A stretch of 64,000 bases of DNA from Halobaculum magnesiiphilum (GTDB lineage Archaea; Halobacteriota; Halobacteria; Halobacteriales; Haloferacaceae). Shown piece by piece: positions 4,688 through 43,720 of this stretch. The notes under the pieces were generated by a model. The model was not told the origin of the DNA. It ran no database searches and worked only from the letters and a program-made list of their open reading frames with translations. The DNA is taken from NCBI RefSeq assembly GCF_019823105.1, contig NZ_CP081958.1:1612001-1676000 (forward strand). The letters run 5' to 3'. A program made the position numbers and the translations under genes. Position 1 is the first letter of the stretch, and each line of letters begins with the position of its first letter.

Positions 4688-5152
4688 CGGCTGAGGGGAG
4701 TAAGCCCCCTTCTGTTCGGCCCGACATTCGGCTGAGCGTCCGCGTCGGTCGCGGGGCGCGTGCCCCGGTCGCTCGCGCGGGGCGCGAGCACCCGGACTAC
4801 CATCGGGGCGGCCGCCGCGGCCGCCCGTCGACGCGGACTTGCACCGGCGAGGATTCGCCGTTCCATCCGTTCCCGCCCGTCTCGCGGCGTGAACCGCGGC
4901 CCTCGGTGGGTTAGCTCCCTTCCCTCTCGGGTCGGTTCGCCCGCCCGCGGCGACGCCGCGGGCGGTCGCGGCGACCGTTCGGTCGCCGCGCGCACCTCAT
5001 CGGTCGGGGCGGGGGGTCTCGTTGCTGTTCCAGAGCCAGCCGTCTCCGACTCCGGGCTTGCGCCCGGTCGCCCGTCCGGGGGTGGGGGGACTTTCCTCAT
5101 GCGCCGTCGCCCGAGAGGGTCGAGCGCACGGGGGTCGGGCTCCCTCTGCCGA
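4688..5152 (-). ncRNA. rnpB: RNase P RNA (archaeal type)
   Basis: This is the catalytic RNA that trims 5' leaders from tRNA precursors. The universal element GAGGAAAGTCC lies at 5099-5089 and its 3' partner ACAGAA-N3-GGCTTA at 4715-4701, both on the minus strand. GGTGCAAGTCC and AGGGAAGGGAG-CTAACCCACC occur between them. The ends pair as helix P1: CGGC plus GAGGGAG near 5151 with CTCCCCTC plus GCCG near 4690. A TATA-like GCTTTATCC at 5182-5174 puts transcription start near 5150. Length of about 465 nt fits haloarchaeal RNase P RNAs. Exact ends are inferred from P1 and may shift by a few bases. Confidence 0.93.
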
Positions 5153-29802: not shown

Positions 29803-29986
29803 ACCGTGACGCAGTCCCCGGGATCTCCCTGGGCGTTTCGGTTCGGGTCGACGCGAGCCGCTCGATCTCGTTCGGTTTCTCCCGGTTCCTCCCGATCCCG
29901 TCGCCTCCGACCGGCTCCGCTCGGTTCGCGTGCCCGCCGAGCGAACGAGTTACCCGCGTCCACACGAAACGGACGGGTAACTGACC

Positions 29987-30052
29987 ATGGCTCGCAAGGA
30001 CGACTACTACAACTATTCGTCTCGGCCTGTTGTGCCTACTGATTAGATCAGA
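29987..30052 (+). pseudogene. Displaced 5' end of rlmE (first nine codons)
   Basis: ATG GCT CGC AAG GAC GAC TAC TAC AAC encodes MARKDDYYN, which corresponds to MAGKDEYYN at the start of the working rlmE gene (42917). Immediately after AAC the reading frame leaves rlmE and reaches a stop (TAG) eight codons later. It is the remnant left on the far side of the inserted element. The original gene would have joined codon 9 here to CGG GCG AAA at 42944. Confidence 0.85.
29999..30013 (+). other. Left attachment site (attL core)
   Basis: GACGACTACTACAAC, matching the copy at 42929-42943 in 14 of 15 bases (GACGAMTACTACAAC, M = C or A). The strictly shared core is TACTACAAC. The rlmE reading frame is intact up to this point and lost after it. 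Confidence 0.8.
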
Positions 30053-30158
30053 GTACTCTTGTTTTCATATGTGACTAATTCGTCGCGTAGATAATCACCG
30101 AGCGACCATTTTCGCGACCATGTCGCTACGGAGGGGGTGACAGGCTGTCCTCGCCGAT

Positions 30159-30506
30159 CTATCGAGCTCGATCCCAGCGCCATGCGATAGAGAGGGCGCC
30201 GACAGCTGTCACGAGACTCACGAGCGTAGAGAGGCTGAGGAAGCCAAGTAGGTCAGGGGCAACGAACCGGAGCCCCATCGCGAGGTCGCTGACGAGCGCG
30301 TAATCGGCCACGACGATGATGGCCGCATATCCAGCCCCGAGGAGCAGCTGGAACGGCCGGATGACCCCGAGGTACGCGAGGACGGCCAGCCCGGTGACCG
30401 CTCCGGTGATGAAGGTCGTCAGCACCCGTACGCCGTGCGCGAACGCGGCGGCCTTGTTGTGGCGGTAGTCCCCGACCGCTTTCCGGAGGAGATTCGAGAG
30501 ACCCAT
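30159..30506 (-). CDS. Small membrane protein of the integrative element
   Basis: A 115-residue protein with three membrane helices (about 27-50, 53-75 and 85-108) and a basic start MGLSNLLRKAVGDYRHNK. No family recognised. It is the last gene of a three-gene run with 30512-31114 (5-base gap) and 31098-31409, so it is likely co-transcribed with them. A function in membrane sensing or abortive defence would be speculation. Confidence 0.7.
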   Translation of the reverse strand: MGLSNLLRKAVGDYRHNKAAAFAHGVRVLTTFITGAVTGLAVLAYLGVIRPFQLLLGAGYAAIIVVADYALVSDLAMGLRFVAPDLLGFLSLSTLVSLVTAVGALSIAWRWDRAR

Positions 30507-30511
30507 CGTGT

Positions 30512-31114
30512 TCAGATGAGGTGGTAGCGGTAGGCCTTGTGCCGGAACACAACCTTGCCGTACGTGTCGCGCTTTTCCACCTCGTCGGCGTCGAGGATCG
30601 CGTCGATGGCGTCGTTGAGGCGCTCACGCTGGGTATCCCGGCTGCCGCTGTGTAGGAACTCCTCGACCCGCTCGGGGTCTATGTCGGCGTCGGCGGCAAT
30701 CACCTCTCGAACGGTGACACCCCGGCCGTCCGCAGTCAGCAGGAGTTCGTCCTCGTCGTCGGGGTCGTCGTCGTGGATGTGTTCGATTAGCGCGGCGCGG
30801 TCATGACGAACGGTCTCCTCAACCTCATCGAAGATGACCTCGTCCCGACGCTCGCTGATGGGGACGTACTTCGATCCGGGCGGGAAGCGTCCCACGATCA
30901 CCGGAATGTCGCGGAGGTTATCGAGGCACGTCCGGAGCTTGTACTCCAGCTCGATGCCTCGCTTCTCAAGCAGCTCCTCGATCTCGTTCTCCTTCAGGGC
31001 CTCGTCCTTGGAGGTGATGCCCTCGGCGTAGAGGAACTGGGCGACGGTCACTTGATCGTCGACGCTGGGCTGGTGGCCGTTCTCCTCGCGGATGATGCTA
31101 AACTCGTGACTCAT
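30512..31114 (-). CDS. Element-borne soluble protein, unknown function
   Basis: A 200-residue charged protein. Residues 20-70 (VAQFLYAEGITSKDEALKENEIEELLEKRG) and 150-190 (RERLNDAIDAILDADEVEKRD) look helical, with an Asp-run DDDPDDEDE between. RFPPGSKYVPISER could be a conserved loop. The C-terminus KVVFRHKAYRYHLI is basic. No catalytic motif known to me. It overlaps the gene upstream (31098-31409) by 17 bases, so the two are translationally coupled. Confidence 0.75.
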   Translation of the reverse strand: MSHEFSIIREENGHQPSVDDQVTVAQFLYAEGITSKDEALKENEIEELLEKRGIELEYKLRTCLDNLRDIPVIVGRFPPGSKYVPISERRDEVIFDEVEETVRHDRAALIEHIHDDDPDDEDELLLTADGRGVTVREVIAADADIDPERVEEFLHSGSRDTQRERLNDAIDAILDADEVEKRDTYGKVVFRHKAYRYHLI

Positions 31115-31409
31115 TCACGGGAGGGGAGGTGACGAACACGTCGAGCCCGGAGGGAATGTCCGCGTCATGCCTGTCGAGGTAGCGCAGTACCTCTTGGAGG
31201 CTCGATAAGCAGACTCGTGGGCCGTCCTGTACTGGTCGGAGCGGAGCATCTGGGTCGGAGGCCATCCGTTGGATCTCACGCTCGACCCGTTCCCTCTCAC
31301 CTGCTGGAAACCAGTCAGTGACAGCGGTAGGCGAAACGGGGTTCGCCGCAAAGCGGCGTTGGTAGAGGAGCTTCTGGATGACCTTGGTGTGTATCTGCCG
31401 GCCGGTCAC
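31098..31409 (-). CDS. Element-borne small protein, first gene of three-gene operon
   Basis: A 103-residue basic/acidic mixed protein (MTGRQIHTKVIQKLLYQRRFAAN at the start). It has no transmembrane segment and no recognised domain; YQRRFAANPVSPTAVTDWF and EREIQRMASDP suggest a helix-turn-helix-like fold but weakly. It is followed by 30512-31114 with overlapping ends. A divergent regulator gene starts 105 bases upstream at 31515, so the pair probably shares a control region. Confidence 0.68.
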   Translation of the reverse strand: MTGRQIHTKVIQKLLYQRRFAANPVSPTAVTDWFPAGERERVEREIQRMASDPDAPLRPVQDGPRVCLSSLQEVLRYLDRHDADIPSGLDVFVTSPPVNESRV

Positions 31410-31514
31410 GAGAGGATACAGAACGCCCCTCTACTTAATACTTGTTGTGAAATCCAACAGAGGCGTGAGTTTACCCAACTACTATATATCGCGCCATTAC
31501 AACATCGTAGTGTG
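31410..31514. promoter_or_regulatory. Divergent promoter between element operon and winged-helix regulator
   Basis: AT-rich stretch with CTACTATATATCGCG at 31479-31493, a strong TATA element about 28 bases before the regulator ATG at 31515, and TACTTAATACTTG near 31433-31445 that could serve the minus-strand operon. The regulator is a natural candidate to bind here. Confidence 0.5.
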
Positions 31515-31862
31515 ATGTCGACCGAATTTAAGAGCGATGGGCGGGAGAATGACGAATCATACCCGGAAAACGCACCACTCGTCCACGTGTTTGGTTCGTC
31601 TGGCAAGGTGAAGATTATCTCGGCACTTCTGAGCGAGCATGACCGCGATCTGAACGTGAGCGACATCGCTGATATTGGCGATGTTGCCCGGAGTACCGTT
31701 TACGAGAACATTGACGACCTGTGTGAGATGGACGTCGTCGTCAAGACGCGCGAGGTCGGGGGCGGCCCAATGTACCAGATCAACACCGAGAACGAGATGG
31801 TTGCCCACATCCGCGAGGTTCGGGACTTGGGGCTCGAGCGGTTACTTGAACTCGAGAAATGA
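31515..31862 (+). CDS. Winged-helix transcriptional regulator
   Basis: A 115-residue DNA-binding protein. GSSGKVKIISALLSEHDRDLNVSDIADIGDVARSTVYENIDDL is a canonical winged-helix core of the ArsR/MarR-like archaeal type, with the recognition helix VARSTVYENI, followed by a wing GGGPMYQINTEN. The ATG at 31515 is set by the TATA 28 bases upstream and by the family N-terminus; the frame remains open further upstream without start signals. It probably controls the divergent three-gene operon or itself. Confidence 0.85.
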   Translation: MSTEFKSDGRENDESYPENAPLVHVFGSSGKVKIISALLSEHDRDLNVSDIADIGDVARSTVYENIDDLCEMDVVVKTREVGGGPMYQINTENEMVAHIREVRDLGLERLLELEK

Positions 31863-32386
31863 GTACAGCAACTGGACTACATAACTAGAAGAACACCGCG
31901 GGGCGTGCGGTCGAGAAGTCGTCGCCCTACGTGAAGCGGGGCGGGAAGTGGTTCATCGTCCACGTTCAGACGCCGCTCCTCTTTTACCTCAAGGAGATCG
32001 CAGTCGCTGCCGCCGCCACGTTGCTCGCGGGTACCTGAACTTCTGGAACCACAGTCATGAGTGAAGACCCTGTGAACGAGATCGACGGCGAGATCGTCCA
32101 ACAAGACGGCACGTTCGCGTCGAAGAGGAGTTCGAATCGACTGAGTGATGGGCGCGTTTCGTACCCCACGCTCTCGAGCTGTCGTACCTACGGACTTGCA
32201 GCCGCACACTCCCACTCGTTGAACGCGTTCCTTCGCTCGTTGAATTATCGGCTTAACTCCGTTGCCATGACGTACTGCCGACTCCGAACCCAGCGGTGCC
32301 GCTGTAGCTAAGTTAGTATATGAATTGATACCCCCAATCATTGATAACGTTTAAGTGTAGACGCTAAGCTAGTCTTTACGATAACA
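31863..32386. other. Gene-poor stretch with decayed coding remnants
   Basis: This stretch of 524 bases has no intact gene. 31889-32038 is a start-less coding remnant (separate entry). A frame beginning ATGAGTGAAGACCC at 32057 starts like a gene (MSEDPVNEIDGEIVQQDGTF) but becomes composition noise after about 25 codons. The last 80 bases are AT-rich promoter sequence for the gene at 32387 (ACGTTTAAGTG near 32347). Confidence 0.55.
31889..32038 (+). pseudogene. Start-less remnant of a small membrane-associated protein
   Basis: The frame 31889-32038 reads KNTAGRAVEKSSPYVKRG, then a Trp/Phe/Val stretch and a hydrophobic end LKEIAVAAAATLLAGT before the stop TGA. It looks like a true protein C-terminus but no start codon precedes it: a TAG lies just upstream. 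Probably the tail of a gene lost when the element was rearranged. Family unknown. Confidence 0.4.
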
Positions 32387-33088
32387 ATGAGCTCGAACGG
32401 TAATTCGGGTGAGAATACACGGGTGACGGTCGATATACCCCTCCGAGACGGTCGCTTATTCAAGAGCGAAGCCACAGACGACATCCTTCTCTTTTTAATC
32501 CGGCATCACGGCGAGTCGTTCTCCATGACGGAGATCGCCGAGGCTGTCGACTACACGCGTCCGACGATTACCAAGGCGGTGGATGTCCTCTCGAATAACG
32601 ACCTCGTCGTCGAAGAGCGCGACGGCTCGCGTCGGCTCGTGCAGATCAACCGCGACCGGGTGACCCGACCAGACGACCCCTATCTCGAAATTCCACAGTC
32701 GGAGTTCCACGCTCCGGTGGCGGCCGCGACGGAGGCGATACTGGACGAACTCGACGACGTCCTCGCCGTCGTCCTCTATGGGAGCGTCGCTCGTGGCGAG
32801 GCCGACCGCCGCAGCGACATCGACCTCTGGGTGTTGGTACGTGAGGACAGGATGGGCAACCAGCGACGGGCGAACCAAGTCAGGCAATCCCTCGAAGCGG
32901 ACACGTTCACCGATAACACGCTGAATGTCCGCCGCATCGGCCGCATCATGAACGATCTGCCAGACGTCCTGATTGTCGATGCTACCGGATTTTTCTCCGA
33001 CGAAGAGGTAGTCACTGTCCGATCCGATGTACGAGGGACGCTCTTCGTTCAGCCAGATCTTGAGCATGAACCCGAGATCGCGATGTAG
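32387..33088 (+). CDS. HTH-nucleotidyltransferase (MNT type), C-terminus replaced
   Basis: A 233-residue reading frame. Residues 28-90 form a winged helix (SMTEIAEAVDYTRPTITKAVDVLSNNDLV), and residues 110-175 a minimal nucleotidyltransferase with YGSVARGEADRRSDIDLWVL (Ser133, Asp144, Asp146). Such HTH-MNT proteins often act as antitoxin or adenylating partner of HEPN toxins, but no HEPN gene is next to it. From about residue 176 the sequence stops resembling the family and is the exact antisense of the integrase gene, so the gene has lost its natural end by fusion. Active-site residues are intact; activity of the chimeric protein is unknown. Confidence 0.75.
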   Translation: MSSNGNSGENTRVTVDIPLRDGRLFKSEATDDILLFLIRHHGESFSMTEIAEAVDYTRPTITKAVDVLSNNDLVVEERDGSRRLVQINRDRVTRPDDPYLEIPQSEFHAPVAAATEAILDELDDVLAVVLYGSVARGEADRRSDIDLWVLVREDRMGNQRRANQVRQSLEADTFTDNTLNVRRIGRIMNDLPDVLIVDATGFFSDEEVVTVRSDVRGTLFVQPDLEHEPEIAM

Positions 33089-33652
33089 CGACAGAGTGCG
33101 ACTCTTGTTGTTCTTACTGCGTTTGATCTCGACCCGTCCGTCTTCACGTCGGAGGTGCTGGAGCTTGATCCCCGCCGTCTCAGAGGCCCGAAGTCCCTCG
33201 AAGTAGGTGATCGCAATGATCAAGGACTCCCGCAGCGTGTCAGCCGCATCGATGAGCCGTCTCACTTCCTCGGGGTCAATTGGTTTGCGTTCGATGCTCG
33301 GAGCGAGATTACTGTAGCGGTTGGGAAGTTTGCTGACGTCCGGCATGTTCTCCCCTTTGAAGTGGTTGAGGAACTCGTGGAGCATGCTGATCGAACTGAT
33401 GTAGACCTTGAGCGTCTCCTCGGTCACCCCGTTACTGACCAGTACGTCTGCATACTCGGCGACATCAGAGTACTCGGCATCCTCGACCGCCATCTCGCCG
33501 AGCGAGTCGGTATATTGACGGAGAGAAGTGATGTTCCCCCCCACCGTTCTCTTGCTGACCTCCTTACACCGCTTGTCGAGGAATTCGCGGACGTAGGGGT
33601 CGTCAAATTCCGAGAAGTCGAACCCATAGGCTGGGTCTGGCTGGGAACTCAT
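32495..33652 (-). pseudogene. Tyrosine recombinase (integrase), 3' half lost
   Basis: Residues 1-247 are a normal archaeal XerC/D-like integrase: an SAM-like arm/core-binding domain (residues 15-105) and the start of the catalytic domain with YFEGLRASET (catalytic Arg155) and KRSKNNKSRTLSL. After DVWQIVHDAADAADIQRVIGE the frame runs into antisense of the nucleotidyltransferase gene and continues open to 32495 without the required HxLRH box, second His and nucleophile Tyr. The break lies at about 32905-32920. The ATG at 33652 overlaps the stop of the upstream regulator (ATGA). It was presumably the enzyme that inserted this element into rlmE. Confidence 0.85.
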
Positions 33653-34233
33653 GCCGTAGCCACCCACCCAGTTCCGCCGGACTGGGTTTCTACCTCCCGG
33701 GCGACGTGGCTGTCACGGAGTCTGTTCAAGCCGCGATGCACCTGTCGACGGTCAAGTTCCGTGTCTTCCATAATTTCGAGGGTCGTGAGCGTCTCGTCTT
33801 TGTCCAGAATTTTCCACAGTTCGTCGGCCAGCTCCTCGTCGGAGAGATCCGACCTGTCCGAGTCGCCCTCGAAAGATTCACTCAGGTCGTCAAGTCGACT
33901 ACCAAGTGCCTCAATGAGGGTGGCCTGTGATTCGAGTTGGTCGCTGTGCTTCCGGATCTCGTGCAGCAACGGTTGGAGTTCCCGCGCAGTCTGGTCGTTC
34001 TCGTGTTGGTTACGGAAGTGTGCGCAGCTGCGCCTCACCAGTTCGCTGAAAGTCATTCCGTTCTCTTTCGCGAAGTCAACGAGGGTCTCGTGCTGTCCCT
34101 CGCTGATCGTTATGTTCACCCGCTTTGCCGTTCGCGTTGCGGTGTCGTTTTCGTCCGGATCGCCCTTCGACTGTGCATCTTCCGAGCCACACCCTCGTTC
34201 TCGGGACGGGTGGGTGTCGTCATTCTCGCTCAT
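33649..34233 (-). CDS. Integrase-linked DNA-binding protein (RHH-like, coiled coil, winged helix)
   Basis: A 194-residue protein. After an acidic leader, residues 35-75 (AKRVNITISEGQHETLVDFAKENGMTFSELVRRSCAHF) resemble a ribbon-helix-helix unit, residues 80-125 (LLHEIRKHSDQLESQATLIEALGSRLDDL) a coiled coil, and residues 140-190 (TLEIMEDTELDRRQVHRGLNRLRDSHVAREV) a winged helix. It overlaps the integrase start by four bases (ATGA), the usual coupling of such accessory proteins to haloarchaeal integrases; a role as recombination directionality factor or repressor is inferred. Confidence 0.78.
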   Translation of the reverse strand: MSENDDTHPSRERGCGSEDAQSKGDPDENDTATRTAKRVNITISEGQHETLVDFAKENGMTFSELVRRSCAHFRNQHENDQTARELQPLLHEIRKHSDQLESQATLIEALGSRLDDLSESFEGDSDRSDLSDEELADELWKILDKDETLTTLEIMEDTELDRRQVHRGLNRLRDSHVAREVETQSGGTGWVATA

Positions 34234-34587
34234 TTCGTGTCACCCATAGCTTTGGGCCGGTGCGACGGCCACGCGTGGCAACCCTTGTTCGACCGCGAGT
34301 ACCGACCGGGCATCAGTGCGACCGTCACGGCGAGCCCGGAATGTCGGAGGGTAATGAATTGGGCAGTTCATTTCTGAACTCCCCATTAATTACTTATGCT
34401 TATGGCGAGGTCGCGGGGAAAAACACATCCGTTACAAAATGTCTCGTTAAGCATATCATTCAAGATACCAGATCTGAACGTTGTACTCTTGTTTTGAATT
34501 ATTCTCCGGGATACAGGTAGTAAGTCACACGCGAACTCCTATCGTCGATGAGTGATCATCCAGTTCGTCCACCAAATTATATACTGA
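34234..34587. other. AT-rich non-coding stretch with palindrome
   Basis: No gene is supported in these 354 bases: stops are frequent in all frames. It carries the upstream region of the minus-strand regulator (CAAAGCTATGG near 34248-34258 may be its TATA) and the palindrome at 34361-34383. GTACTCTTGTTTT at 34484-34496 repeats a 13-base word found near the left border at 30052. Confidence 0.6.
34361..34383. promoter_or_regulatory. Inverted repeat, possible operator
   Basis: GGGcAGTTCA-tttc-TGAACTcCCC: ten-base arms that match except for one position, separated by four bases. It lies about 130 bases upstream of the integrase-linked regulator. Either an operator for that protein or an accessory recombination site; no T-rich tail marks it as a terminator. 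Confidence 0.4.
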
Positions 34588-35310
34588 TTAGAGGTCATCC
34601 TCTGTGAAGATCAGACGGGAGCTATTCTCGGTGAGCCAGTCGACGTGTGACTCATAGTCCGGGACGTGATTTCCAACAATGCTCCAGAAATTCCGTGTGT
34701 GATTCTTTTCCCGAAGGTGAGCGAGCTCGTGGACAACGACATAGTCGATCACATCGTCAGGAGCCATCACGAGCCGCCAATTGAAACTGAGTGTCTTCTG
34801 TGGAGAACAGCTCGCCCACCTAGTTCGCTGATTTCGGAGTTCCAACTTGCCGGGTTCGACCGCCATTTCAGCGGCGAAGTAGTCGATCCGAGACTGAAAC
34901 AAAGATCTCGCCTCCCGCCGATAGAGTGCCTCTAGCTCACTTCGAACACTCGTCCCATCGACAGCGTTGGAAGCGAGGACGAACGCTCCCGGCTCAACGT
35001 GTGACTGCTCGACATCGTCGATTGCCAACTGCAAGTCCTCTCCCCGGTAGGGAAAGACCTCGCCCTCCTCGAACGATCGGGAAGGTGCCCGGTTGCGATG
35101 GCCTTGAAACACACGCCACTTCTTCAACAGCCATCGCGAGTTTTCCTCGACGAGACCGTGAGGATCGACGTCGCTGCCTGTCGGAAGCACCACGACCACA
35201 CCGTGAATGTCGACATCGATTCGAGGTTGGGTGGCGTCATCGCTTCGTCGTACCTCGTACTCGATCGTCTCGTCGAACACCTGAATCGATCCCGTAGCCT
35301 CAATCCGCAT
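34588..35310 (-). CDS. YgjP-type (DUF45/SprT-like) zinc metallopeptidase
   Basis: A 240-residue protein with the YgjP-like fold in its C-terminal half. VVVHELAHLREKNHTRNFW contains HELAH plus a third His, the zinc site, and RWASCSPQKTLSFNWRLVMAP is the conserved segment before it. The N-terminal part (IQVFDETIEYEVRRSDD) is beta-rich. I set the ATG at 35310 because it overlaps the hsdR stop by 11 bases and the frame upstream is antisense-like. YgjP proteins occur frequently beside type I restriction genes; their substrate is not firmly known. It is the last gene of the operon. Confidence 0.87.
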   Translation of the reverse strand: MRIEATGSIQVFDETIEYEVRRSDDATQPRIDVDIHGVVVVLPTGSDVDPHGLVEENSRWLLKKWRVFQGHRNRAPSRSFEEGEVFPYRGEDLQLAIDDVEQSHVEPGAFVLASNAVDGTSVRSELEALYRREARSLFQSRIDYFAAEMAVEPGKLELRNQRTRWASCSPQKTLSFNWRLVMAPDDVIDYVVVHELAHLREKNHTRNFWSIVGNHVPDYESHVDWLTENSSRLIFTEDDL

Positions 35311-38300
35311 TCTCGATGAGGTACTCGATGGTCTGCTCGAGGAACCTGTCGTCCTTGGCGAGCGCAACCTTCCCGTGTTCCTTCGCCAGTCGGCGGATGA
35401 GGAGGCGACGGATCTTCTTGCGAGTCTCGGAGCTGGTCTCCCAGCCTTCAAACCGCTCAATCTCGGCATCGAACTGCTCCGAGATGTCAGTCGCGATGCG
35501 CTCTGCCTCGTCCTCACCAGCTACCTCGTCCCCGTAGTTATCCGTCAGCTCGGAGTAGATGGCGTGAGCCCCTTCACTGAGGCCGTGTTCATCGAGTTCC
35601 ACCTCGAAGTCGATGACGTCGCGTTCGACCCGCTCAAGCTTCTCGACGGCATCGGGATCGGTGAGGTCGCCGCGCTGCCAGCGGTCGACGATGTCCTCCA
35701 ACTTCTCACTGAGCGACTTGTATTTCGGGTTCCGGTCGACCCGCGGCTGGAGGTGTTCCCGGGTGGCGTGCTCAATGGCGTTCGCCTTCGCGGCCGGCTC
35801 GGTCATTTGGTCGACCTGCTGGAGGTGCTTCTCCCCTAGCTTGTACACCGGGTAAGTGTCCTTGATCTCGCCGATCTCGACGTTGTCGGCGATGATCTTC
35901 TTCGTCTTTTCCCGGAGGTTCTCTTCGGGGTTCTCCTCGCGGTTGTTGTTCAGACGGTAGGCGACGAACACGTTCGTCAGCCATTTGTAGTCGTCCTGAA
36001 TCCCGCGCCCGACGAGTTCCTTGTCGGGCGACAGGGTCTCGTAGAGATCCTGTAGCTCACGGTAGCCCTGCTTGAAGTCGCGCTTCGGCTGGGGCTTGCT
36101 GAGTCGAGCGAGACACTTGTTGAGCGTCTCCTGCCGATTGTCGCGAGGGATGTCGTCGAACAGACCTAACAGGTCGTCGACGAGCGCCTCGATGTCTTCG
36201 AGCAACTGCTTGCGCGACCGATCGATCTCGGAACGGACATCGGCTCCGTAGTCAAGGGCGTCGTCGAGGTTCGCGAACACTCCCTGATAGTCGACGATCT
36301 CGCCGTTGTGCTTCCCGTCTGCCGGGCGGTTCGTCCGCGCGATTGCCTGCAGGAGGTTGTGGTTCTTCAGGTTCCGGTCGAGGTACATCGTCTTCAGCAC
36401 CGGCGCGTCGAACCCGGTGAGGAGCATATCCACGACGACGAGTAGCTTCGGATCCCCGTCGGGGTCTTTGAAGTTCTCGACGATGGCGTCGCGCTCCTCG
36501 GGCGTCGTGTGGAACTGACGGACGGTCTCGGAGTCGTTTCCGGTGCTGGTGTACAACACCTCGACCTCCTCGGGATCGTAGTACTTCCGCAGCTCCTCGC
36601 CGTAGATGGCAGCGGCCTTGCGGCTTGGCGTGACCACCATGCCCTTCCAGTGGTTGGGCCGCACCGTCTTCTCGAAGTGGTCAATGATGCCCCGTTGATC
36701 GCCTGCCCAGACGACCTCCTCGACTCGAGGCCGGAGTTCCGAGATCTCCGTTGTGGTCAGGTACTTCTCGATCACATCCTGCCTCTCGTCGACACTGAGT
36801 GTCGAGAACTCCCGGTCGAAGTCGAGGTCGATCGCGTCGGCGTCGATCTCCCACTCCATGTCGTGGCGGAGGGTGAAGTGAACCGGCAGGATCAGGCCGT
36901 CGTCGATCCCGTCACCGATGGAGTAGTAGTGCAGGTACAACTCCTCGGGCTTCCCCTCCGGACGGTAGTTGGAGAACGTGTCCCGCTCGGACTCGCGCAC
37001 AGGCGTGCCAGTGAACCCGAAGTGGAACGCGTCCGGGAGCGCGGCGGCCAGCTTGTTGCCGAGATCCTTCTCCATGAACCGGTGGGCCTCGTCGGACATG
37101 ACGACAGTCGGCTGATCGCGCTGGAGGTTGGACTCGACGTCCTCGAACTTCTGGATGGTCGTGACGATGAGTTCGCTCTGGTCGGTCTGGAGCCTACGCT
37201 CGAGGTGGTCGATGTTCTTGGCCCGGGTGAACATCTCGAAGTTCCCGAGATTGTTGAGCGTCTGGGCCATCTGATCCTCGAGATCCTTCGTGTCGACCAC
37301 GAGGACGACCTTCGGGTGGTCGAGGACGCCGCGCTCCAGCAGCATTCGGGCGGCGTACAGCATGGTGAACGACTTCCCGCTGCCCTGCGTGTGCCAAATC
37401 AGTCCTCGACGCATGGCCTCGTCGGTGCGCCCCTCGCGCACCCGATCGAGAATCCGGTTGGCCGCGTAGTACTGCATGTACCGCGGGATTATCTTCGTCG
37501 TCCCGCCGGTGCGGTGCTCGTAGAAGACGAAGTTTCGGAGGACGTCCAGCAGGGTCTCGTGGTTGCACATCGCCAGCACCGGCTCTTTGAGCGGGTTGGC
37601 GTCCTCCTCCTCCTCCACGCGGTATTCAGGCGGCGTCGCCTCCTCGTCGGCCTCCCACGGCATGTAGAACGACGAGGTCGCGCCGACGGCGCCGTAGCGG
37701 TACGCCATCGAGTCGACGGCGACGTTCCAGAGGTTCGGGACGAACAGCCGCGAGACGTCCTCCTCGTAGTCGCGGAGGTCGCTGATGGCGTCGTAGTAGT
37801 CGTTTTCCTGCGCGAGCGACTTCAGCTCCATCGTTACCAGCGGGATGCCGTTGACGAACAGGTTCACGTCGGGCCGAATGGAGTTACCCCCGCGCTTCAC
37901 GCGGAACTCGTCAGCGGCGACGAAGCGGTTGTTCTCGATGTCGCGGAGGTCGACGAGGCGCACGAAGATGCGCTTCGTCTCCTTGCCCTCCTCGCTCGTG
38001 ACGGCGAACCGCTTCCCGCGGACGAGCAGTCGGTGGAACTCCTCGTTGGCCTCCACGAGGTTGGCGCTGTCGTGGGCGAGATCGCGCCGGAGCGAGGTCA
38101 GGAAGTCGTCGACGTTGTCCTCGGTGATCTGGTCGTTGTTGCCGACCTCAGATTCCACGAGCCACTCACGGAGCATCCCGTAGTAGATGACTTCTGTCGG
38201 GTCACGACCGTACTTTTCGTCGAGGGTAGTCGCACCCTCGCCTTCATCCTCCCCGAGGCCGTAGGTGTCGTAATTCAGGCACTCTAACCATCTGAGGACA

Positions 38301-38344
38301 TCCTCTTTGACTCCAGATTCGTCAGGAGTGGCGGATTTAGCCAT
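35300..38344 (-). CDS. hsdR: Type I restriction enzyme, R subunit
   Basis: A 1014-residue motor-nuclease subunit that translocates and cleaves unmethylated DNA. The N-terminal HSDR_N nuclease has Asp159 and MELKS (Glu173, Lys175), a PD-(D/E)xK site. The superfamily 2 motor follows with Walker A GSGKS (321-325), DEAH in VMSDEAHRFM near 415, FTGTPV, and motif VI ARTNRPADGKHNGEIVDYQG. The C-terminal 350 residues are helical and bind HsdM/S. The start ATG at 38344 overlaps the hsdS stop by 8 bases. All key residues are present, so it should be active. Confidence 0.95.
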   Translation of the reverse strand: MAKSATPDESGVKEDVLRWLECLNYDTYGLGEDEGEGATTLDEKYGRDPTEVIYYGMLREWLVESEVGNNDQITEDNVDDFLTSLRRDLAHDSANLVEANEEFHRLLVRGKRFAVTSEEGKETKRIFVRLVDLRDIENNRFVAADEFRVKRGGNSIRPDVNLFVNGIPLVTMELKSLAQENDYYDAISDLRDYEEDVSRLFVPNLWNVAVDSMAYRYGAVGATSSFYMPWEADEEATPPEYRVEEEEDANPLKEPVLAMCNHETLLDVLRNFVFYEHRTGGTTKIIPRYMQYYAANRILDRVREGRTDEAMRRGLIWHTQGSGKSFTMLYAARMLLERGVLDHPKVVLVVDTKDLEDQMAQTLNNLGNFEMFTRAKNIDHLERRLQTDQSELIVTTIQKFEDVESNLQRDQPTVVMSDEAHRFMEKDLGNKLAAALPDAFHFGFTGTPVRESERDTFSNYRPEGKPEELYLHYYSIGDGIDDGLILPVHFTLRHDMEWEIDADAIDLDFDREFSTLSVDERQDVIEKYLTTTEISELRPRVEEVVWAGDQRGIIDHFEKTVRPNHWKGMVVTPSRKAAAIYGEELRKYYDPEEVEVLYTSTGNDSETVRQFHTTPEERDAIVENFKDPDGDPKLLVVVDMLLTGFDAPVLKTMYLDRNLKNHNLLQAIARTNRPADGKHNGEIVDYQGVFANLDDALDYGADVRSEIDRSRKQLLEDIEALVDDLLGLFDDIPRDNRQETLNKCLARLSKPQPKRDFKQGYRELQDLYETLSPDKELVGRGIQDDYKWLTNVFVAYRLNNNREENPEENLREKTKKIIADNVEIGEIKDTYPVYKLGEKHLQQVDQMTEPAAKANAIEHATREHLQPRVDRNPKYKSLSEKLEDIVDRWQRGDLTDPDAVEKLERVERDVIDFEVELDEHGLSEGAHAIYSELTDNYGDEVAGEDEAERIATDISEQFDAEIERFEGWETSSETRKKIRRLLIRRLAKEHGKVALAKDDRFLEQTIEYLIENAD

Positions 38345-39722
38345 GTTTACTCACCCGTGGGTTGATCTCGATGTCCGCTTGGTTTGTTCGAACATCTCCG
38401 GAAATAAGGTCACTCAGTAGACCTCGCTTGATCCTCGCTAACTGAGACTTATACTGCTCGTTCGATTCGATCTGCCTGTCGAATTCTCTGATCACTTCGG
38501 CGATCTCCTGCTGTTCTTCGACGGGGGGCCGAGGCATCAGAATGCGCTGGACGTTTTGGGCGTTGATGTTCGCTTGGCTGACCCCCTTGGTGGCGAAGGC
38601 CATCAATCGGTCTTGTCCCTTCTTCGAGTTGAGATAGTAGTTCAGATAATAGGGGTCGGCATGGCTGTTAGCACGCAGTCGAACTAGATACGAGGCGAAC
38701 ACGTAGTCTCCTTCAAGATTGAAGAGCCCCGTCTTGCCTACTAGCTCGTAACTGTTCGTTCTATTGAACAGGATGTCCCCCTTCTCGACTTTGTACTTCT
38801 CGAACTCGTCGTCCTCCAAGTCGATGTACTTCATCGGGGAGTCCACCATGTACCCGTTCTCGATGTTGTTCATCCGGAAAACGGGGTATTCTCCCTCTGT
38901 CGACAGACTTTCTGATAGGCCGTATTGGGCCAGCTCAACGACGTCACCGATTGAGCAAACCTCCCACTCCGAAGGTATGCGACCGACCGCGGTATCTTTA
39001 AAGTCATCGTGCGACCGAGTACCCTCTCGAAGGAGTTCCTGCGTCACTCCCTTCTTTACCCGGTGCGTCTGTTGAAGGATCTCGTTCGTTTTTTCGATGG
39101 CCTGATCAATGTCCATCAAGATGCTAGCGGTCTTCTGCTGCTCTTCCATCGGAGGGAGCGAGATCTCCAACTCCTTTCGGAACACGTCGAAGGGCACCCG
39201 CTGACGCCCCGTCGACCCGCGCATCCGTGAGATGGCGTAGTTCCGAACGGGATAGGATTTGGCCACGTAGTAGAGGTACAGGGGGTGGATGCGCTCGCGG
39301 TCGGGCGACAGGACGGCATACTCGGTTGAGCCGATGCCCACGTTGGTCTCCATCGCGTCGACGAAGGCCGCCTTGCCGTTCTCTGTACAGGGCGTAATGC
39401 GGGCGAACAGGGTGTCGCCCTCTCGGAAGAGCTTCCCACTGTAGTCCGCCGCCTTGCGCTTCGTAGCGTACTTCGGGAACGGCAGTTCCGTGTCGAGGGC
39501 ATCCATCTCGATGTACGTGATTTCCTCCTCCTCGGGCGTGTATGAGGGGTTCACGTCGTAGACCTCGGTGCCATCGACTAGTTCCCACTCTGTAGGCACC
39601 ACGCCCCAAAAACGGCTCTGCAGCGCCTCGGTCGCCACGGCGCCACCGTCGGCGGCCGTCTCGGTGGCGTCCGTCGTGGGCGAGTCGTCGGGCTGGTCGG
39701 TGGGGATGTCGTCGTCACTCAT
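38337..39722 (-). CDS. hsdS: Type I restriction-modification specificity subunit
   Basis: This 461-residue subunit chooses the two-part DNA target. Two target-recognition domains are seen: the first from about residue 40 to 185, closed by the conserved helix start LPPMEEQQKTASILMDIDQAI, and the second from about 245 to 405, closed by PRPPVEEQQEIAEVIREFDRQI. The two repeats of PP-xEEQQ mark the helical spacers that set the gap length. The ATG at 39722 overlaps the hsdM stop by 8 bases. The recognition sequence cannot be read from sequence alone. Confidence 0.93.
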   Translation of the reverse strand: MSDDDIPTDQPDDSPTTDATETAADGGAVATEALQSRFWGVVPTEWELVDGTEVYDVNPSYTPEEEEITYIEMDALDTELPFPKYATKRKAADYSGKLFREGDTLFARITPCTENGKAAFVDAMETNVGIGSTEYAVLSPDRERIHPLYLYYVAKSYPVRNYAISRMRGSTGRQRVPFDVFRKELEISLPPMEEQQKTASILMDIDQAIEKTNEILQQTHRVKKGVTQELLREGTRSHDDFKDTAVGRIPSEWEVCSIGDVVELAQYGLSESLSTEGEYPVFRMNNIENGYMVDSPMKYIDLEDDEFEKYKVEKGDILFNRTNSYELVGKTGLFNLEGDYVFASYLVRLRANSHADPYYLNYYLNSKKGQDRLMAFATKGVSQANINAQNVQRILMPRPPVEEQQEIAEVIREFDRQIESNEQYKSQLARIKRGLLSDLISGDVRTNQADIEINPRVSKHG

Positions 39723-41331
39723 AGTTGAGAGCCTCCATGTGCTGGTCGAGTCGGGCCTCGATGTCGGCACGCTCCTGCCGGAGTTCGCGCAGCTCGTCGA
39801 ATTCCTCGGCGACGTCGATGTCCTCTTCTGGTTCGGTCGTGTCGACGTACAGCGCGATGTTGAGGTTGTAATCGTTCTTGCGGATCTCTTCACGGGTGGC
39901 CGTTCGACTGACCTTCTCCTCGGTCGTCCAGTCGTGGTAGTTGTCGACGATGTGGTCGACACCCGTCTCCGTCAGCTCATTCTGGCTGTTGTTGGAGACG
40001 TCCCGGTAGAACGGCTCGTCGACCGCGTGGTTGTCCGCGGCGTGGAGGAACAGGACTTCGTCCTCGCGCTCCTCCGGCTTGTCCTCGTTTAGCACGAGGA
40101 CAGACGTCGGGATGGCGTTGTTCTGGAAGAGGTCAGCGGGCAATCCAATGATCGCTTCCACGAGATCACGCTCTACCATCGGCTCCCGGTACCTCCCCTC
40201 GTGCTTGCGGAACAGCACGCCGTTCGGAACGACGATGGCGGCCCGACCAGTCTCGTTGAGCTGCTCGGCGATATGCATGATGAACGCGTAGTCGCCGCGG
40301 TCGGCCCGGGGAAGCTTCTCCGTCCAGTCGAACCGGCTGTACGGGTCGTCCTGCAGCCCGTCCTTGTCCCAGTTGGCCGAGAACGGGAAATTGGCGAGGA
40401 CGTAGTCGAACTTGGTCAGAGTGGTGTCGTCCTCGGTGAACAGCGGTTCACTGAGCGAGTCCTGTCGCTTGACCTCCCCCTTCAGCCCGTTGAGGAACAG
40501 GTTCATCTTCGCGATGGACGCGATGTCGGGGTTGACCTCCTGTCCTGTCATCGTGAGTTGGGAGGGGTCGCCGCCCTGCTCCTCCCGGAAGTGGTGGGCC
40601 GCTTCGATGAGGAAGCCAGCGGAACCACAGGTAGGGTCGTGGAAGGTGTCGCCCGACTCGTAGGGTGCGAGCAGCCGCACCATCATCCGGACGATCTGTG
40701 GCGGGGTGAAGAACTCGCCCCCATCGCGACCCTCCTCGGATGCGAAGTGCCGCACTAAATCCATGTATGCCTCCCCGAGCATATCGTCGGGAAGCCGCTG
40801 CTGACTCAGGTTGTGGGTGCTGAGGTGTTCGACGAGGCGGATGAGCTTGCCGTCGGACTCAGCGAGGGCATCCGCGGCCATGAAGTCCGAGCGGAACACC
40901 CCATTGAGCTGGTCGGGGTTGGCGTTCTCGATCTCGGTGAACGCCTCGTCGATGAACGACGCGACGTTCTCCTTCTGACTCCGGAGATCCTGCTCGGCGT
41001 CCTTCCCCTCCCACTCGTACCCGTCCGGGAGCGCGTCGTCGTCGGCCTCCCAGAGGTACCCCTCCGGGATCTGGAAGTCGTGGAACGCCTCGTCGCGAGC
41101 GAGTTCGGCGTCCTCGAACTCATCAAGGTTTGCCGCGTACTCGTCGACGAAGGTGTCGCTGATGCTCTTGTAGAACACCAGCGGGAGGATATAGTCCTTG
41201 TAGTCGGTCTTGTCGACCGTGTTGCGGATGATGTCCGCGCACTTGAACAAGTGCTTCTCGAGCTGGTCGGTCGTGAGGTTGGTCGTCGGCTGGCTGTCGG
41301 CGAGCGTCTGCTGATTGGGATCGTCAGTCAT
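39715..41331 (-). CDS. hsdM: Type I DNA adenine methyltransferase, M subunit
   Basis: This 538-residue methylase protects host DNA and is part of the restriction complex. An N-terminal helical domain (residues 20-190) precedes GGEFFTPPQIVRMMV, AdoMet motif I DPTCGSAGF (232-240) and motif IV NFPFS (314-318), the form of NPPF used by many type I M subunits. The C-terminal 100 residues contain a coiled coil (FDELRELRQERADIEARLDQH). The ATG at 41331 overlaps the previous stop as ATGA, so translation is coupled to the winged-helix gene. Confidence 0.95.
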   Translation of the reverse strand: MTDDPNQQTLADSQPTTNLTTDQLEKHLFKCADIIRNTVDKTDYKDYILPLVFYKSISDTFVDEYAANLDEFEDAELARDEAFHDFQIPEGYLWEADDDALPDGYEWEGKDAEQDLRSQKENVASFIDEAFTEIENANPDQLNGVFRSDFMAADALAESDGKLIRLVEHLSTHNLSQQRLPDDMLGEAYMDLVRHFASEEGRDGGEFFTPPQIVRMMVRLLAPYESGDTFHDPTCGSAGFLIEAAHHFREEQGGDPSQLTMTGQEVNPDIASIAKMNLFLNGLKGEVKRQDSLSEPLFTEDDTTLTKFDYVLANFPFSANWDKDGLQDDPYSRFDWTEKLPRADRGDYAFIMHIAEQLNETGRAAIVVPNGVLFRKHEGRYREPMVERDLVEAIIGLPADLFQNNAIPTSVLVLNEDKPEEREDEVLFLHAADNHAVDEPFYRDVSNNSQNELTETGVDHIVDNYHDWTTEEKVSRTATREEIRKNDYNLNIALYVDTTEPEEDIDVAEEFDELRELRQERADIEARLDQHMEALNYE

Positions 41332-42023
41332 GCGTTGTTGGTGAAGTAGGTAGTCATCGTTGCCGCCGGCGCGTCGCCGGGGAGGTACTCTGCTACGTCT
41401 GCGTGCGCGTCCGCGAGGGCGTCGAGGCCAGCGTGGACGCGGTCGAGGGCGACCGCGAGTTGGAGCAAGGGACGCACCGTCTCCCACGCCGGGTCGTCTC
41501 GGCCCTCGAAGTCCGAGTGCGTCACAACGTGGGTAGCTGCGCTCCGCACCAGCTGGTCGGCGTGCAGCATCACCTCGCGAATCGTCTGGATGCGACTATC
41601 GTCGAGCGCGTCGACGAGCGCCGCGACGAGGACGTCGACGAAAAGGTCATTGTCCTCGAACGTGTTCCGGAGGCCGCGCTTGGTGGCCGTACGCGTCTCG
41701 TTGTACGCGGCCACTTCGTCGGCGAACCGGTCAGACTCGGCCTCGCGTGCGAGGTAACGGTCGACGTGCTCGCGGTACAGCGCCAGCAGCTCCGACTCGA
41801 CGACCTCATACCGGCGTCCATCTGTCTCGCGCACGAGGTCAGTCTCGACGAGCTTCCGGCAGTTGTTGGAGATGGCGCCCTTCGAGACCGGGAGCAACTC
41901 GTCGAGGTCGCTCTGCCTTGGGGCCGTTCCATCGCGGAACTGCAGCTTCGCGATGGCCGCCACGATGTCCGTCTGCGTACGGCCCTCTCGGGCATCCAGT
42001 AGGGAGGTCGCCGGCATCCTCAC
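41328..42023 (-). CDS. Restriction-operon winged-helix protein
   Basis: A 231-residue protein placed between the coiled-coil/TRAM gene and hsdM with overlapping starts and stops on both sides. Residues 15-70 form a helix-turn-helix (TQTDIVAAIAKLQFRDGTAPRQSDLDELLPVSKGAISNNCRKLVETDLV); the rest is helical with Glu/Arg-rich segments. The GTG at 42023 gives a GTGA overlap with the gene before it; an ATG two codons later is an alternative. It may regulate the operon or assist the complex. I do not know a family name for it. Confidence 0.8.
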   Translation of the reverse strand: MRMPATSLLDAREGRTQTDIVAAIAKLQFRDGTAPRQSDLDELLPVSKGAISNNCRKLVETDLVRETDGRRYEVVESELLALYREHVDRYLAREAESDRFADEVAAYNETRTATKRGLRNTFEDNDLFVDVLVAALVDALDDSRIQTIREVMLHADQLVRSAATHVVTHSDFEGRDDPAWETVRPLLQLAVALDRVHAGLDALADAHADVAEYLPGDAPAATMTTYFTNNA

Positions 42024-42634
42024 TCCCCGAGGGTCTCGGTCAGTGCGGCGTGAGCCGCTGTTCCGTTGAGATCAGTGATGGTTACGTCTACGAGGTCACC
42101 CTCTTTGTACTCCGAGGGGTCATCCACGTCGACGAAGGTCTGTACCTTCTCGATCTTCCCGCGGAGGGTGGCGTCCGGCCGTCCTTCTACCTCCTCGACG
42201 ACGAGTTCGCGCTCGTCGCCGCGATTGAAGGGGATCGAGGAGTTCTGTGCGTCGACGTGCGCCGTCTGCTTCTCCAATAGGTCAGGATTCAAGCACCCCT
42301 CGACGGCGTCGAGGCGTGCCGCGAGGTCGTCTTGCCGACTTCGGAGGTCGTCGACTTCCTCCTCAAGCATCTCCTCGAGGTCGGCCACGTTCGCGGTCAA
42401 GTGACGAAGCGCCTCGGAGAGGTCGCCGATCTCAGCCTGCAGTTCACCCTTGTCGCCGTTCAGTTCGTCAATGCTCTCGTCGAGGGCGTCCACGTGGGCG
42501 GCGAGGGCGCGCAGATCCTCGTCAATCTCCGGAACGGCCGAGCACAACACCGCGATTGTCTCCAGATCGGTGGACAGACGGTTGAATGCGCCGATACCGG
42601 CTCCGACCGGACTCCCCTGAGTTTGAGCAGACAT
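42020..42634 (-). CDS. Coiled-coil protein with C-terminal TRAM-like domain
   Basis: This 204-residue protein is the first gene of the restriction operon. Residues 35-110 are a long heptad-rich coiled coil (LNGDKGELQAEIGDLSEALRHL; LEEMLEEEVDDLRSRQDDL). Residues 140-204 (GKIEKVQTFVDVDDPSEYKEGDLVDVTITDLNGTAAHA) match the small beta-barrel pattern of TRAM/OB RNA-binding domains. Such a protein is not a standard part of type I systems. The ATG at 42634 is preceded by a TATA-like GTACTAAGTTACC about 26 bases upstream. Its role with HsdRMS is unknown. Confidence 0.78.
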   Translation of the reverse strand: MSAQTQGSPVGAGIGAFNRLSTDLETIAVLCSAVPEIDEDLRALAAHVDALDESIDELNGDKGELQAEIGDLSEALRHLTANVADLEEMLEEEVDDLRSRQDDLAARLDAVEGCLNPDLLEKQTAHVDAQNSSIPFNRGDERELVVEEVEGRPDATLRGKIEKVQTFVDVDDPSEYKEGDLVDVTITDLNGTAAHAALTETLGE

Positions 42635-42916
42635 CTCGACTCATTCAATGTGCGGGGGTAACTTAGTACTTGGGTTTTGGATAAGCCGCTCATTCTTTAT
42701 AAAATCGTTTAGCATTCCTGACTTCTGTATTGATGGCCAGTAAGAGCGCTGTGGGCGTGAAAATACATTTGTAAATGGTGTAGGTAGGTGTGGCAGGTTT
42801 CCCTTCACATACATAAGCGATGTGCCTTTCCGGTTCGACCACGTCGCACCGAACATGAACGCGTATTCGCTCGAATCGGCAGTCAAGAACATGTCAGCGA
42901 TTTCAGTAAGGTAGTC
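42635..42916. promoter_or_regulatory. Right border region, divergent promoters of restriction operon and rlmE
   Basis: 282 AT-rich bases. The minus strand has the restriction-operon TATA near 42655-42667 and CGATTTTATAAAG at 42697-42709. The plus strand must now drive rlmE; no strong TATA lies 25-30 bases before 42917, so rlmE may use a weak or more distant element start. The frames open here are not convincing genes. Confidence 0.5.
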
Positions 42917-43720
42917 ATGGCAGGTAAAGACGAATACTACAACCGGGCGAAACAGGAGGGCTACCGCGCGCGCTCGGCCTACAAGCTCCGGCAGATCGAC
43001 GAGGAGGTCGACCTCTTCGACCACGGCGACACCGTCGTCGACCTCGGCGCAGCCCCCGGCGGCTGGCTCCAGGTCGCCGCCGAGGAGGTGACCGAGGCCG
43101 GCCGCGTCGTCGGCGTCGACCTCCAGCGCATCGACGACCTCGACCACCCGCACGTCGAGACGGTCCGCGGCGACATGACCGAGGAGCGCACGCGCTACTA
43201 CCTCCGGAAGGCGCTCGGCGTCGACCCAGATCCCGACGATGACACCGAGCCCGAGCGACCCGTCGACCTCGTCGTCTCCGACATGGCGCCGAACATGACC
43301 GGCGAGTACCAGCTCGACCACGCCCGGTCGATCCACCTCTGCCGGCAGGCGTTCGACACCGCGCTCGAACTCCTGACGCCCGGCGGCGACTTCGTCGTGA
43401 AGGTGTTCGACGGCCCCGACCTCGCCGACTTCCGCGAGGACGTGGAGGCGCAGTTCCAGTACGTCCGGGCGTACACCCCGGAGGCGAGCCGGAAGCGTTC
43501 CTCCGAGCGCTACCTGATCGCCCGCGGCCGCACCGACTCGCCCGTCGCGGCGGGCGACCGGCTCACCGTCGAGGTGACCGACGTCGGCGAGGAGGGCGAC
43601 GGGATCGCCCGCGTCGACGGGTACACGCTGTTCGTTCCCGGCACCGAGGCCGGCGAGACCGTCGAGGTCGTCGTCGACGACGTGAAGCCGCGGTTCGGGT
43701 TCGCCGAGCGCGTCGACTGA
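42917..43720 (+). CDS. rlmE: 23S rRNA 2'-O-methyltransferase RlmE with TRAM domain
   Basis: This 267-residue enzyme methylates the 2'-OH of a uridine in the peptidyl-transferase A loop of 23S rRNA. Residues 1-200 are the FtsJ/RrmJ fold: RSAYKLRQIDEE (catalytic Lys), VDLGAAPGGWLQVA (AdoMet loop), VVSDMAPNMTGE (catalytic Asp) and DFVVKVFDG (second Lys). Residues 205-267 form a TRAM domain (GEEGDGIARVDGYTLFVPG). The first nine codons (MAGKDEYYN) were supplied by the integrative element and differ from the displaced host copy at 29987 (MARKDDYYN) in five bases and two residues. Start fixed by family and by this comparison. Confidence 0.95.
   Translation: MAGKDEYYNRAKQEGYRARSAYKLRQIDEEVDLFDHGDTVVDLGAAPGGWLQVAAEEVTEAGRVVGVDLQRIDDLDHPHVETVRGDMTEERTRYYLRKALGVDPDPDDDTEPERPVDLVVSDMAPNMTGEYQLDHARSIHLCRQAFDTALELLTPGGDFVVKVFDGPDLADFREDVEAQFQYVRAYTPEASRKRSSERYLIARGRTDSPVAAGDRLTVEVTDVGEEGDGIARVDGYTLFVPGTEAGETVEVVVDDVKPRFGFAERVD
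42929..42943 (+). other. Right attachment site (attR core)
   Basis: GACGAATACTACAAC, codons 5-9 of the functional rlmE; one mismatch to the left copy at 29999-30013. Core chromosome sequence resumes at 42944 (CGGGCGAAACAGG). Confidence 0.8.

What the first reader, a model, noticed from the sequence alone, without database searches (positions are those of the whole stretch)
34588..42634. Six-gene type I restriction operon with two extra upstream genes and a metallopeptidase
The genes overlap or abut (ATGA, GTGA, 8- and 11-base overlaps), so they form one unit: coiled-coil/TRAM protein, winged-helix protein, hsdM, hsdS, hsdR, YgjP peptidase. The first two are not part of standard type I systems. 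A TRAM-like RNA-binding barrel on a long coiled coil could sense RNA or ribosome state, or guard against self-damage; the winged-helix protein may switch the operon. This is the best candidate in the window for an undescribed defence variant.
Basis: partly seen in the sequence, partly recalled or inferred. Interest (0 to 1): 0.65.

Follow-up and report, generated by a model that had tools for sequence, protein, structure and literature searches.

The report
Archaeal restriction operon with dedicated regulator
A salt-loving archaeon carries, on a decayed integrated element, a complete type I restriction (DNA self/non-self) operon that begins with two extra genes, one of which is a DNA-binding protein found only in front of this lineage of restriction enzymes and probably switches the operon on and off.

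Summary
The six-gene operon is real. Five overlapping junctions (4, 4, 8, 8, 11 bp) join CC/TRAM, winged-helix (WH), hsdM, hsdS, hsdR and a YgjP metallopeptidase.

WH is not a stray neighbour. All 13 full-length relatives, from 12 of 391 Halobacteria genomes, lie directly before hsdM-hsdS-hsdR. None occurs in the 23 other relatives of this hsdM whose upstream DNA I read. On the HsdM tree the split needs one change. CC/TRAM is narrower: 5 loci, always just before WH, one of them a second copy in the same genome.

YgjP is ordinary: 17 of 17 WH-less operons checked have it, as do four bacterial plasmids.

WH operons share two promoter elements that WH-less hsdM promoters lack. The upstream one (AGTNANNNNTRCTAAAC) occurs once in the whole genome, at this promoter. 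WH is therefore most likely the operon's own transcription factor, analogous but unrelated to bacterial RptR. Binding is inferred, not shown. CC/TRAM's role is unknown; I suggest a nucleic-acid-binding cofactor.

The operon is cargo of a ~12.9-kb island inserted in the 5' end of rlmE; a sister genome shows the empty site. The island's integrase is truncated.

Verdict: new variant of a known kind.

The parts
42020..42634 (-). CC/TRAM protein, 204 aa: long coiled coil (about residues 12-114) and a C-terminal TRAM/OB domain (about 134-202)
   Evidence: ORF; model with helix 12-114 and five strands, pLDDT 78 but pTM 0.33; Foldseek best hits MiaB TRAM and archaeal stand-alone TRAM proteins; present in 5 loci only, always before WH
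41328..42023 (-). WH protein, 231 aa: N-terminal winged helix-turn-helix (about 10-74) and an all-helical C-terminal domain; proposed operon regulator
   Evidence: ORF; model pLDDT 87, pTM 0.83; winged-helix matches Z about 10; 13 of 13 full-length relatives directly before hsdM
39715..41331 (-). hsdM, type I N6-adenine methyltransferase subunit
   Evidence: Pfam N6_Mtase E 6.7e-82 and HsdM_N 4.9e-19
38337..39722 (-). hsdS, specificity subunit with two Methylase_S stretches
   Evidence: Pfam Methylase_S E 1.4e-34, 2 stretches
35300..38344 (-). hsdR, restriction/translocation subunit with nuclease and helicase motifs
   Evidence: NCBIfam hsdR E 2.7e-146 above cut-off; motifs PD...ELK, GSGKS, DEAH
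34588..35310 (-). YgjP-like metallopeptidase (HEXXH), a generic companion of hsdR
   Evidence: Pfam YgjP-like E 6.8e-54; 17/17 WH-less operons
42707..42723 (-). Element U, AGTCAGGAATGCTAAAC, 73-89 nt before the first gene; candidate operator
   Evidence: Leave-one-clade-out p = 0.0025 (floor of 400 shuffles) for 5 of 13 promoters and at most 0.02 for 7; only match to AGTNANNNNTRCTAAAC in the whole genome
42657..42674 (-). Element D, CCCAAGTACTAAGTTACC, about 23-40 nt before the first gene; at the core-promoter position
   Evidence: Conserved in 10 of 13 WH promoters; best scores in 23 WH-less promoters at most 8.5 against at least 17.7 in those ten
30014..42943 (.). Integrated island (about 12.9 kb) that carries the operon; its right end supplies the start codon and first codons of rlmE
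   Evidence: Empty site in sister genome G015: window 30013 joins 42916; displaced rlmE 5' end at 29986-30013; GC 0.54-0.65 against 0.68-0.78 outside
32495..33667 (-). Tyrosine integrase of the island; catalytic C-terminus missing, so probably inactive
   Evidence: Phage_integrase match stops at profile position 125 of 172; the homologue in L053 continues into LRHSFATH

Best explanation
A complete type I restriction-modification operon with its own transcription factor. Shown: gene content, coupled gene order, exclusive association of WH with one HsdM lineage, and lineage-specific promoter elements. Inferred: WH binds as a dimer to element U, an imperfect dyad (GTNAG-N5-CTAAAC), and possibly to D over the core promoter, and sets expression of itself and of hsdM-hsdS-hsdR-ygjP, most likely as an autorepressor. 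This would keep restriction low until it is needed, or until methylation is complete after the island enters a new host. Also inferred, weaker: CC/TRAM is an oligomeric nucleic-acid-binding cofactor of WH that arose in one sub-lineage. HsdMS methylates and HsdRMS restricts in the ordinary type I way; YgjP is a general accessory of type I restriction.
For: Order and overlaps. WH in 13 of 13 cases directly before hsdM and in 0 of 17 WH-less operons read in full. One change of WH presence on the HsdM tree, WH-less clade 100/98. WH and HsdM distances correlate, r = 0.85, Mantel p = 2e-4. WH is a winged helix with a helical C-domain. Element U predicts held-out clades and stands once in the genome; WH-less promoters have no conserved block there. 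A bacterial precedent with the same layout (regulator first, M48 peptidase last) is experimentally established (PMC12255303).
Against: No binding or expression data. Element U is not recovered in clade D promoters (p 0.23-0.85) and is borderline in L051/L054 (0.055); element D is not recovered in L051, L054 and L061. D lies where a core promoter would be, and WH-less operons have their own conserved block at that position, so D may be no more than a promoter. Shared ancestry of the promoters can produce conservation without WH binding. The C-terminal domain of WH has no recognised family, so a role as an HsdM/S partner is not excluded.
Confidence: 0.62

Rival explanations
1. WH and CC/TRAM are subunits or activity modulators of the restriction complex itself. 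They bind HsdM/HsdS or HsdR, or DNA beside the target, and adjust methylation or cleavage rather than transcription.
For: 4-bp coupling of WH to hsdM and co-inheritance; long coiled coil in CC suits protein-protein contact.
Against: Closely related HsdM (59-64% identical over the aligned part) lie in complete operons without WH or CC; the promoter elements follow WH presence.
Confidence: 0.2
2. WH is a passenger: an unrelated DNA-binding gene fixed by linkage in one lineage, with no effect on restriction.
For: Most related operons do without it; the N-terminal domain belongs to a very common archaeal winged-helix type.
Against: Kept intact and adjacent in 13 of 13 loci, on plasmids and chromosomes, across several families, at 35-48% identity between clades.
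Confidence: 0.1
3. WH and YgjP form a repressor-protease switch like CapH-CapP of CBASS: YgjP cleaves WH when phage or DNA damage is sensed and thereby releases the operon.
For: Both in one operon in 9 of 13 loci; the CapH/CapP precedent is discussed for type I regulators in PMC12255303.
Against: YgjP is present in 17 of 17 operons that have no WH and absent from 4 of 13 that have it, so the two are not coupled.
Confidence: 0.05

Closest known systems
RptR-RMS-DarTG-M48 (RRDM) island of E. coli (PMC12255303)
   Same: First gene encodes a DNA-binding regulator; then hsdM, hsdS, hsdR; a zinc metallopeptidase gene at the end; repeated or dyad promoter elements near the start.
   Different: RptR is a 79-aa single-domain four-helix protein (PMC12255303), WH is a 231-aa winged-helix protein; sites differ (TAGCTA against AGTNANNNNTRCTAAAC); no DarTG here; an extra CC/TRAM gene comes first here; archaeal.
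Type I restriction-modification systems of Halobacteria without WH
   Same: hsdM, hsdS, hsdR and YgjP in the same order, HsdM about 59-64% identical over the aligned part.
   Different: No WH or CC/TRAM gene and a different conserved promoter block.
C (controller) proteins of type II restriction-modification systems
   Same: Small operon-encoded regulator acting on its own restriction genes, if the proposal here is right.
   Different: From general knowledge, C proteins are lambda-cI-like HTH proteins and control type II systems; WH has a winged helix and a helical C-domain and sits with type I genes.
Stand-alone archaeal TRAM proteins such as TRAM0076 (PMC6705878, PMC5572242)
   Same: Same TRAM/OB fold as the C-terminal domain of CC (MMP0076 structure); those proteins are RNA chaperones (abstracts).
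   Different: CC adds a ~100-residue coiled coil and lies in a restriction operon; RNA binding is untested.

Membership tests
Type I restriction-modification system | HsdM with N6-adenine methyltransferase domain and HsdM_N | tested here: met
   Pfam E 6.7e-82 and 4.9e-19; motif IV reads NFPF, as in all 35 related HsdM compared
Type I restriction-modification system | HsdS with two target-recognition domains | tested here: met
   Methylase_S, two stretches, E 1.4e-34
Type I restriction-modification system | HsdR with nuclease and SF2 translocase motifs | tested here: met
   TIGR00348 E 2.7e-146; PD...ELK, GSGKS, DEAH
Type I restriction-modification system | Methylation of a bipartite site and ATP-dependent cleavage | not testable with these tools
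   Needs methylome sequencing and a restriction assay
RptR regulator family | 79-aa single-domain four-helix protein with conserved helix alpha-4 | tested here: not met
   WH is 231 aa, a winged helix plus helical domain; RptR described in PMC12255303
RptR regulator family | At least two TAGCTA-type 6-bp palindromes in the promoter | tested here: not met
   No TAGCTA, TAGATA, TATCTA or TATATA in the window's 300-nt upstream sequence (read by eye in the output)
RptR-like arrangement (works like, not member) | DNA-binding gene directly before hsdM-hsdS-hsdR with lineage-specific promoter elements | tested here: met
MarR / winged-helix DNA-binding proteins | Winged helix-turn-helix fold | tested here: met
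   MarR_2 in 9 of 13 members, best E 8e-9; structural matches Z about 10 over residues 10-74
TRAM domain proteins | TRAM match above the Pfam cut-off | tested here: not met
   16.2 bits against a cut-off of 21
TRAM domain proteins | Five-stranded TRAM/OB fold | tested here: met
   Foldseek E 4.9e-4 to MiaB, TM-score 0.72-0.73 on MM1357 and MMP0076; Z up to 9.0. The domain is modelled at pLDDT about 60-75
TRAM domain proteins | RNA binding or chaperone activity | not testable with these tools
   Needs a biochemical assay
YgjP-like metallopeptidases | YgjP-like domain with HEXXH | tested here: met
   E 6.8e-54; HELAH

The most novel reading that the evidence does not exclude
WH and CC/TRAM together form a sensor switch. 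WH represses the operon from element U, and CC/TRAM, a coiled-coil nucleic-acid-binding protein, relieves or enforces this repression on binding RNA or DNA made during virus infection or entry of foreign DNA. It would be an archaeal restriction system that is induced by a nucleic-acid signal.
Probability: 0.12. Interest if true: 0.75.

Novelty: new variant of a known kind. Interest (0 to 1): 0.5.

Why it matters
How type I restriction genes are switched is poorly known, above all in archaea. Two surveys of archaeal restriction systems show no mention of accessory genes or peptidases in my term searches. Here a dedicated winged-helix gene is locked to one HsdM lineage and comes with a predicted operator that stands once in the genome. 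That makes regulation of an archaeal restriction system directly testable by a gel-shift and a deletion. It also suggests that bacteria (RptR) and archaea (WH) separately placed an unrelated regulator at the same position of the same kind of operon.

Tried and rejected
Viral contigs: no relative of WH in IMG/VR. The genome contigs pattern scan found only 4 loci and was less sensitive than genome search. The profile of WH hits a ~276-aa winged-helix protein in most methanogens, but only over residues 7-84; these are not relatives of the whole protein and were not counted. Coiled-coil hits of CC to SMC, Rad50, Jet and Lamassu models were rejected as composition effects. A relation of WH to the 198-aa gene before hsdM in Acetobacter was tested and not found. 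I considered that WH presence was scattered over the hsdM tree; the tree showed one change instead. Foldseek gave no full-length match for WH (best E 8e-3 to GntR proteins with poor superposition), so the fold of its C-domain remains open. I did not search WH in bacteria or in archaea outside the phylum.

Full report
Observation. Five junctions overlap by 4 (GTGA), 4 (ATGA), 8, 8 and 11 bases, which indicates one transcription unit. hsdM, hsdS, hsdR and the YgjP peptidase are unambiguous, and the catalytic motifs of HsdR and YgjP are intact. HsdM reads NFPF instead of the usual NPPF, but so do all the related haloarchaeal HsdM compared, so this is a clade feature.

The two upstream proteins. 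WH (231 aa) is predicted with good confidence (pLDDT 87, pTM 0.83) as an N-terminal winged helix and an all-helical C-terminal domain. The best structural matches cover mainly the winged helix (DtxR/IdeR, MntR, MarR-type and Z-alpha domains, Z about 10, rmsd from 1.0, over residues about 10-74). CC (204 aa) is a helix from 12 to 114 followed by a five-stranded domain. That domain matches MiaB TRAM and the stand-alone archaeal TRAM proteins MM1357 and MMP0076. The CC model is weaker (pTM 0.33, domain pLDDT 60-75), and the Pfam TRAM score is under its cut-off, so TRAM rests on fold similarity. With a profile of CC, relatives of the TRAM part alone also appear elsewhere in Halobacteria, several as small proteins with an N-terminal membrane-like stretch.

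Distribution. Among 391 genomes of the class, 12 hold full-length WH relatives, 13 in all, two of them in the window's genome. I fetched the neighbourhood of the 12 others: every one is directly before hsdM, hsdS and hsdR. CC-like genes occur in five loci: the window, the second replicon of the same genome, Ca. Halobonum tyrrellensis (G021; name), G104, and a Haloplanus aerogenes plasmid (G067). They are always just before WH. WH itself is annotated in public records only as a helix-turn-helix or hypothetical protein. In the other direction, 23 related hsdM genes without a WH gene upstream were read. Of these, 17 were followed downstream: all have hsdR and YgjP, none WH or CC.

Phylogeny. On a maximum-likelihood tree of HsdM, WH presence needs a single change, and the WH-less group is one side of a branch with support 100/98. 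Which state is ancestral depends on the root. Pairwise distances of WH and HsdM correlate (r = 0.85, Mantel p = 2e-4). WH is thus a fixed part of certain operons, not a sporadic neighbour. CC belongs to one sub-branch of five (support 90/89).

YgjP. The peptidase is a general companion of type I restriction. It follows hsdR in plasmids of Acetobacter, Vibrio and Providencia and lies beside hsdR in Jeotgalibaca. The RptR island of E. coli ends with an M48 metallopeptidase (PMC12255303). YgjP is absent from 4 of 13 WH operons, so it is not tied to WH.

Promoter elements. Upstream of the first gene, WH operons share element U (about AAGTNANNNNTRCTAAAC, its CTAAAC 69-78 nt before the start codon) and element D (about CAAGTACTAAGTGG, 29-32 nt before it). 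I built weight matrices from the other clades and scored each held-out promoter against 400 dinucleotide shuffles. U is recovered in clades A, B and C (p 0.0025 to 0.02; 0.0025 is the floor), borderline in L051/L054 (0.055), and not in clade D. D is recovered in clades A, B and D (p at most 0.0175) and not in L051, L054 and L061. With matrices from all clades (so the WH promoters are scored in-sample), the 23 WH-less promoters stay below the WH promoters for U (at most 11.0 against at least 11.5), and for D except in those three loci. U has the look of an imperfect dyad, GTNAG-N5-CTAAAC. Four promoters of clade D have instead a near-perfect dyad between D and the start (AAGTGGTGTG-CGGT-CACACAACTT). 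The U pattern has one match in the 3.7-Mb genome, at this promoter, as expected of a local regulator. WH-less promoters have no conserved block at the U position, but they do have another one at the position of D (about ACCRCAGRRNATA). D may therefore be the core promoter.

Island. In a sister genome (G015) the DNA that flanks the island is joined: window 30013 is followed by 42916. The insertion lies in the first codons of rlmE. The native 5' end, CATGGCTCGCAAGGACGACTACTACAAC, is left at 29986-30013, and the island supplies a diverged copy, CATGGCAGGTAAAGACGAATACTACAAC, that restores the frame. GC falls from 0.68-0.78 outside to 0.54-0.65 inside. The island's tyrosine integrase lacks its catalytic end. 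In G104 the same operon also lies near rlmE and carries an intact relative of that integrase.

Mechanism. Shown: anatomy, association, tree, promoter elements, island. Inferred: WH binds U (and perhaps D) and controls the operon. I favour autorepression, by analogy with RptR, which represses its own promoter and whose island rises on phage infection (PMC12255303). It is an analogy of layout only: RptR is a 79-aa four-helix protein with TAGCTA sites, so WH is not a member of that family. CC/TRAM as a nucleic-acid-binding cofactor of WH is a weaker inference. The rivals are a subunit role, a passenger, and a repressor-protease pair.

Novelty. The restriction enzymes are ordinary. The dedicated archaeal regulator with its predicted operator, and the CC/TRAM companion, were not found described in the papers searched. 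That library is incomplete and the two surveys were checked by term search only, so this is absence of evidence. I file it as a new variant of a known kind.

Noticed in passing
29986-30013 and 42916-42943: An island of about 12.9 kb is inserted in the 5' end of rlmE (FtsJ-type rRNA methyltransferase with a TRAM domain); it displaces the native start and supplies a diverged start that restores the gene, and so also a new upstream region for rlmE.
   Followed up: yes
32495-33667 (-): The island's tyrosine integrase is truncated: the catalytic end is missing and the reading frame runs on through the antisense of the neighbouring gene 32387-33088.
   Followed up: partly
L051 (second replicon of the same genome): A second complete six-gene copy of the system with a different HsdS (32% identical), WH 48% identical and a diverged U element, in the same genome.
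   Followed up: partly
L055, L056, L057: These WH operons carry two hsdM genes that flank hsdS (WH-M1-S-M2-R-YgjP); M2 is only 41-43% identical to the window's HsdM.
   Followed up: no
L131:1480-1854 (+): A 124-aa coiled-coil/TRAM protein resembling the end of CC lies between an ATPase-like and a DNA-methylase-like gene (judged by eye; Pfam did not name them), possibly another defence locus.
   Followed up: partly
L103-L126, about 30 nt before hsdM: WH-less haloarchaeal type I operons share their own conserved leader block, about ACCRCAGRRNATA, across many genera.
   Followed up: partly
32387-33088 (+): Protein with a MarR-type winged helix and a nucleotidyltransferase domain inside the island.
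   Followed up: no
4689-5150 (-): Archaeal RNase P RNA gene (Rfam RF00373).
   Followed up: no
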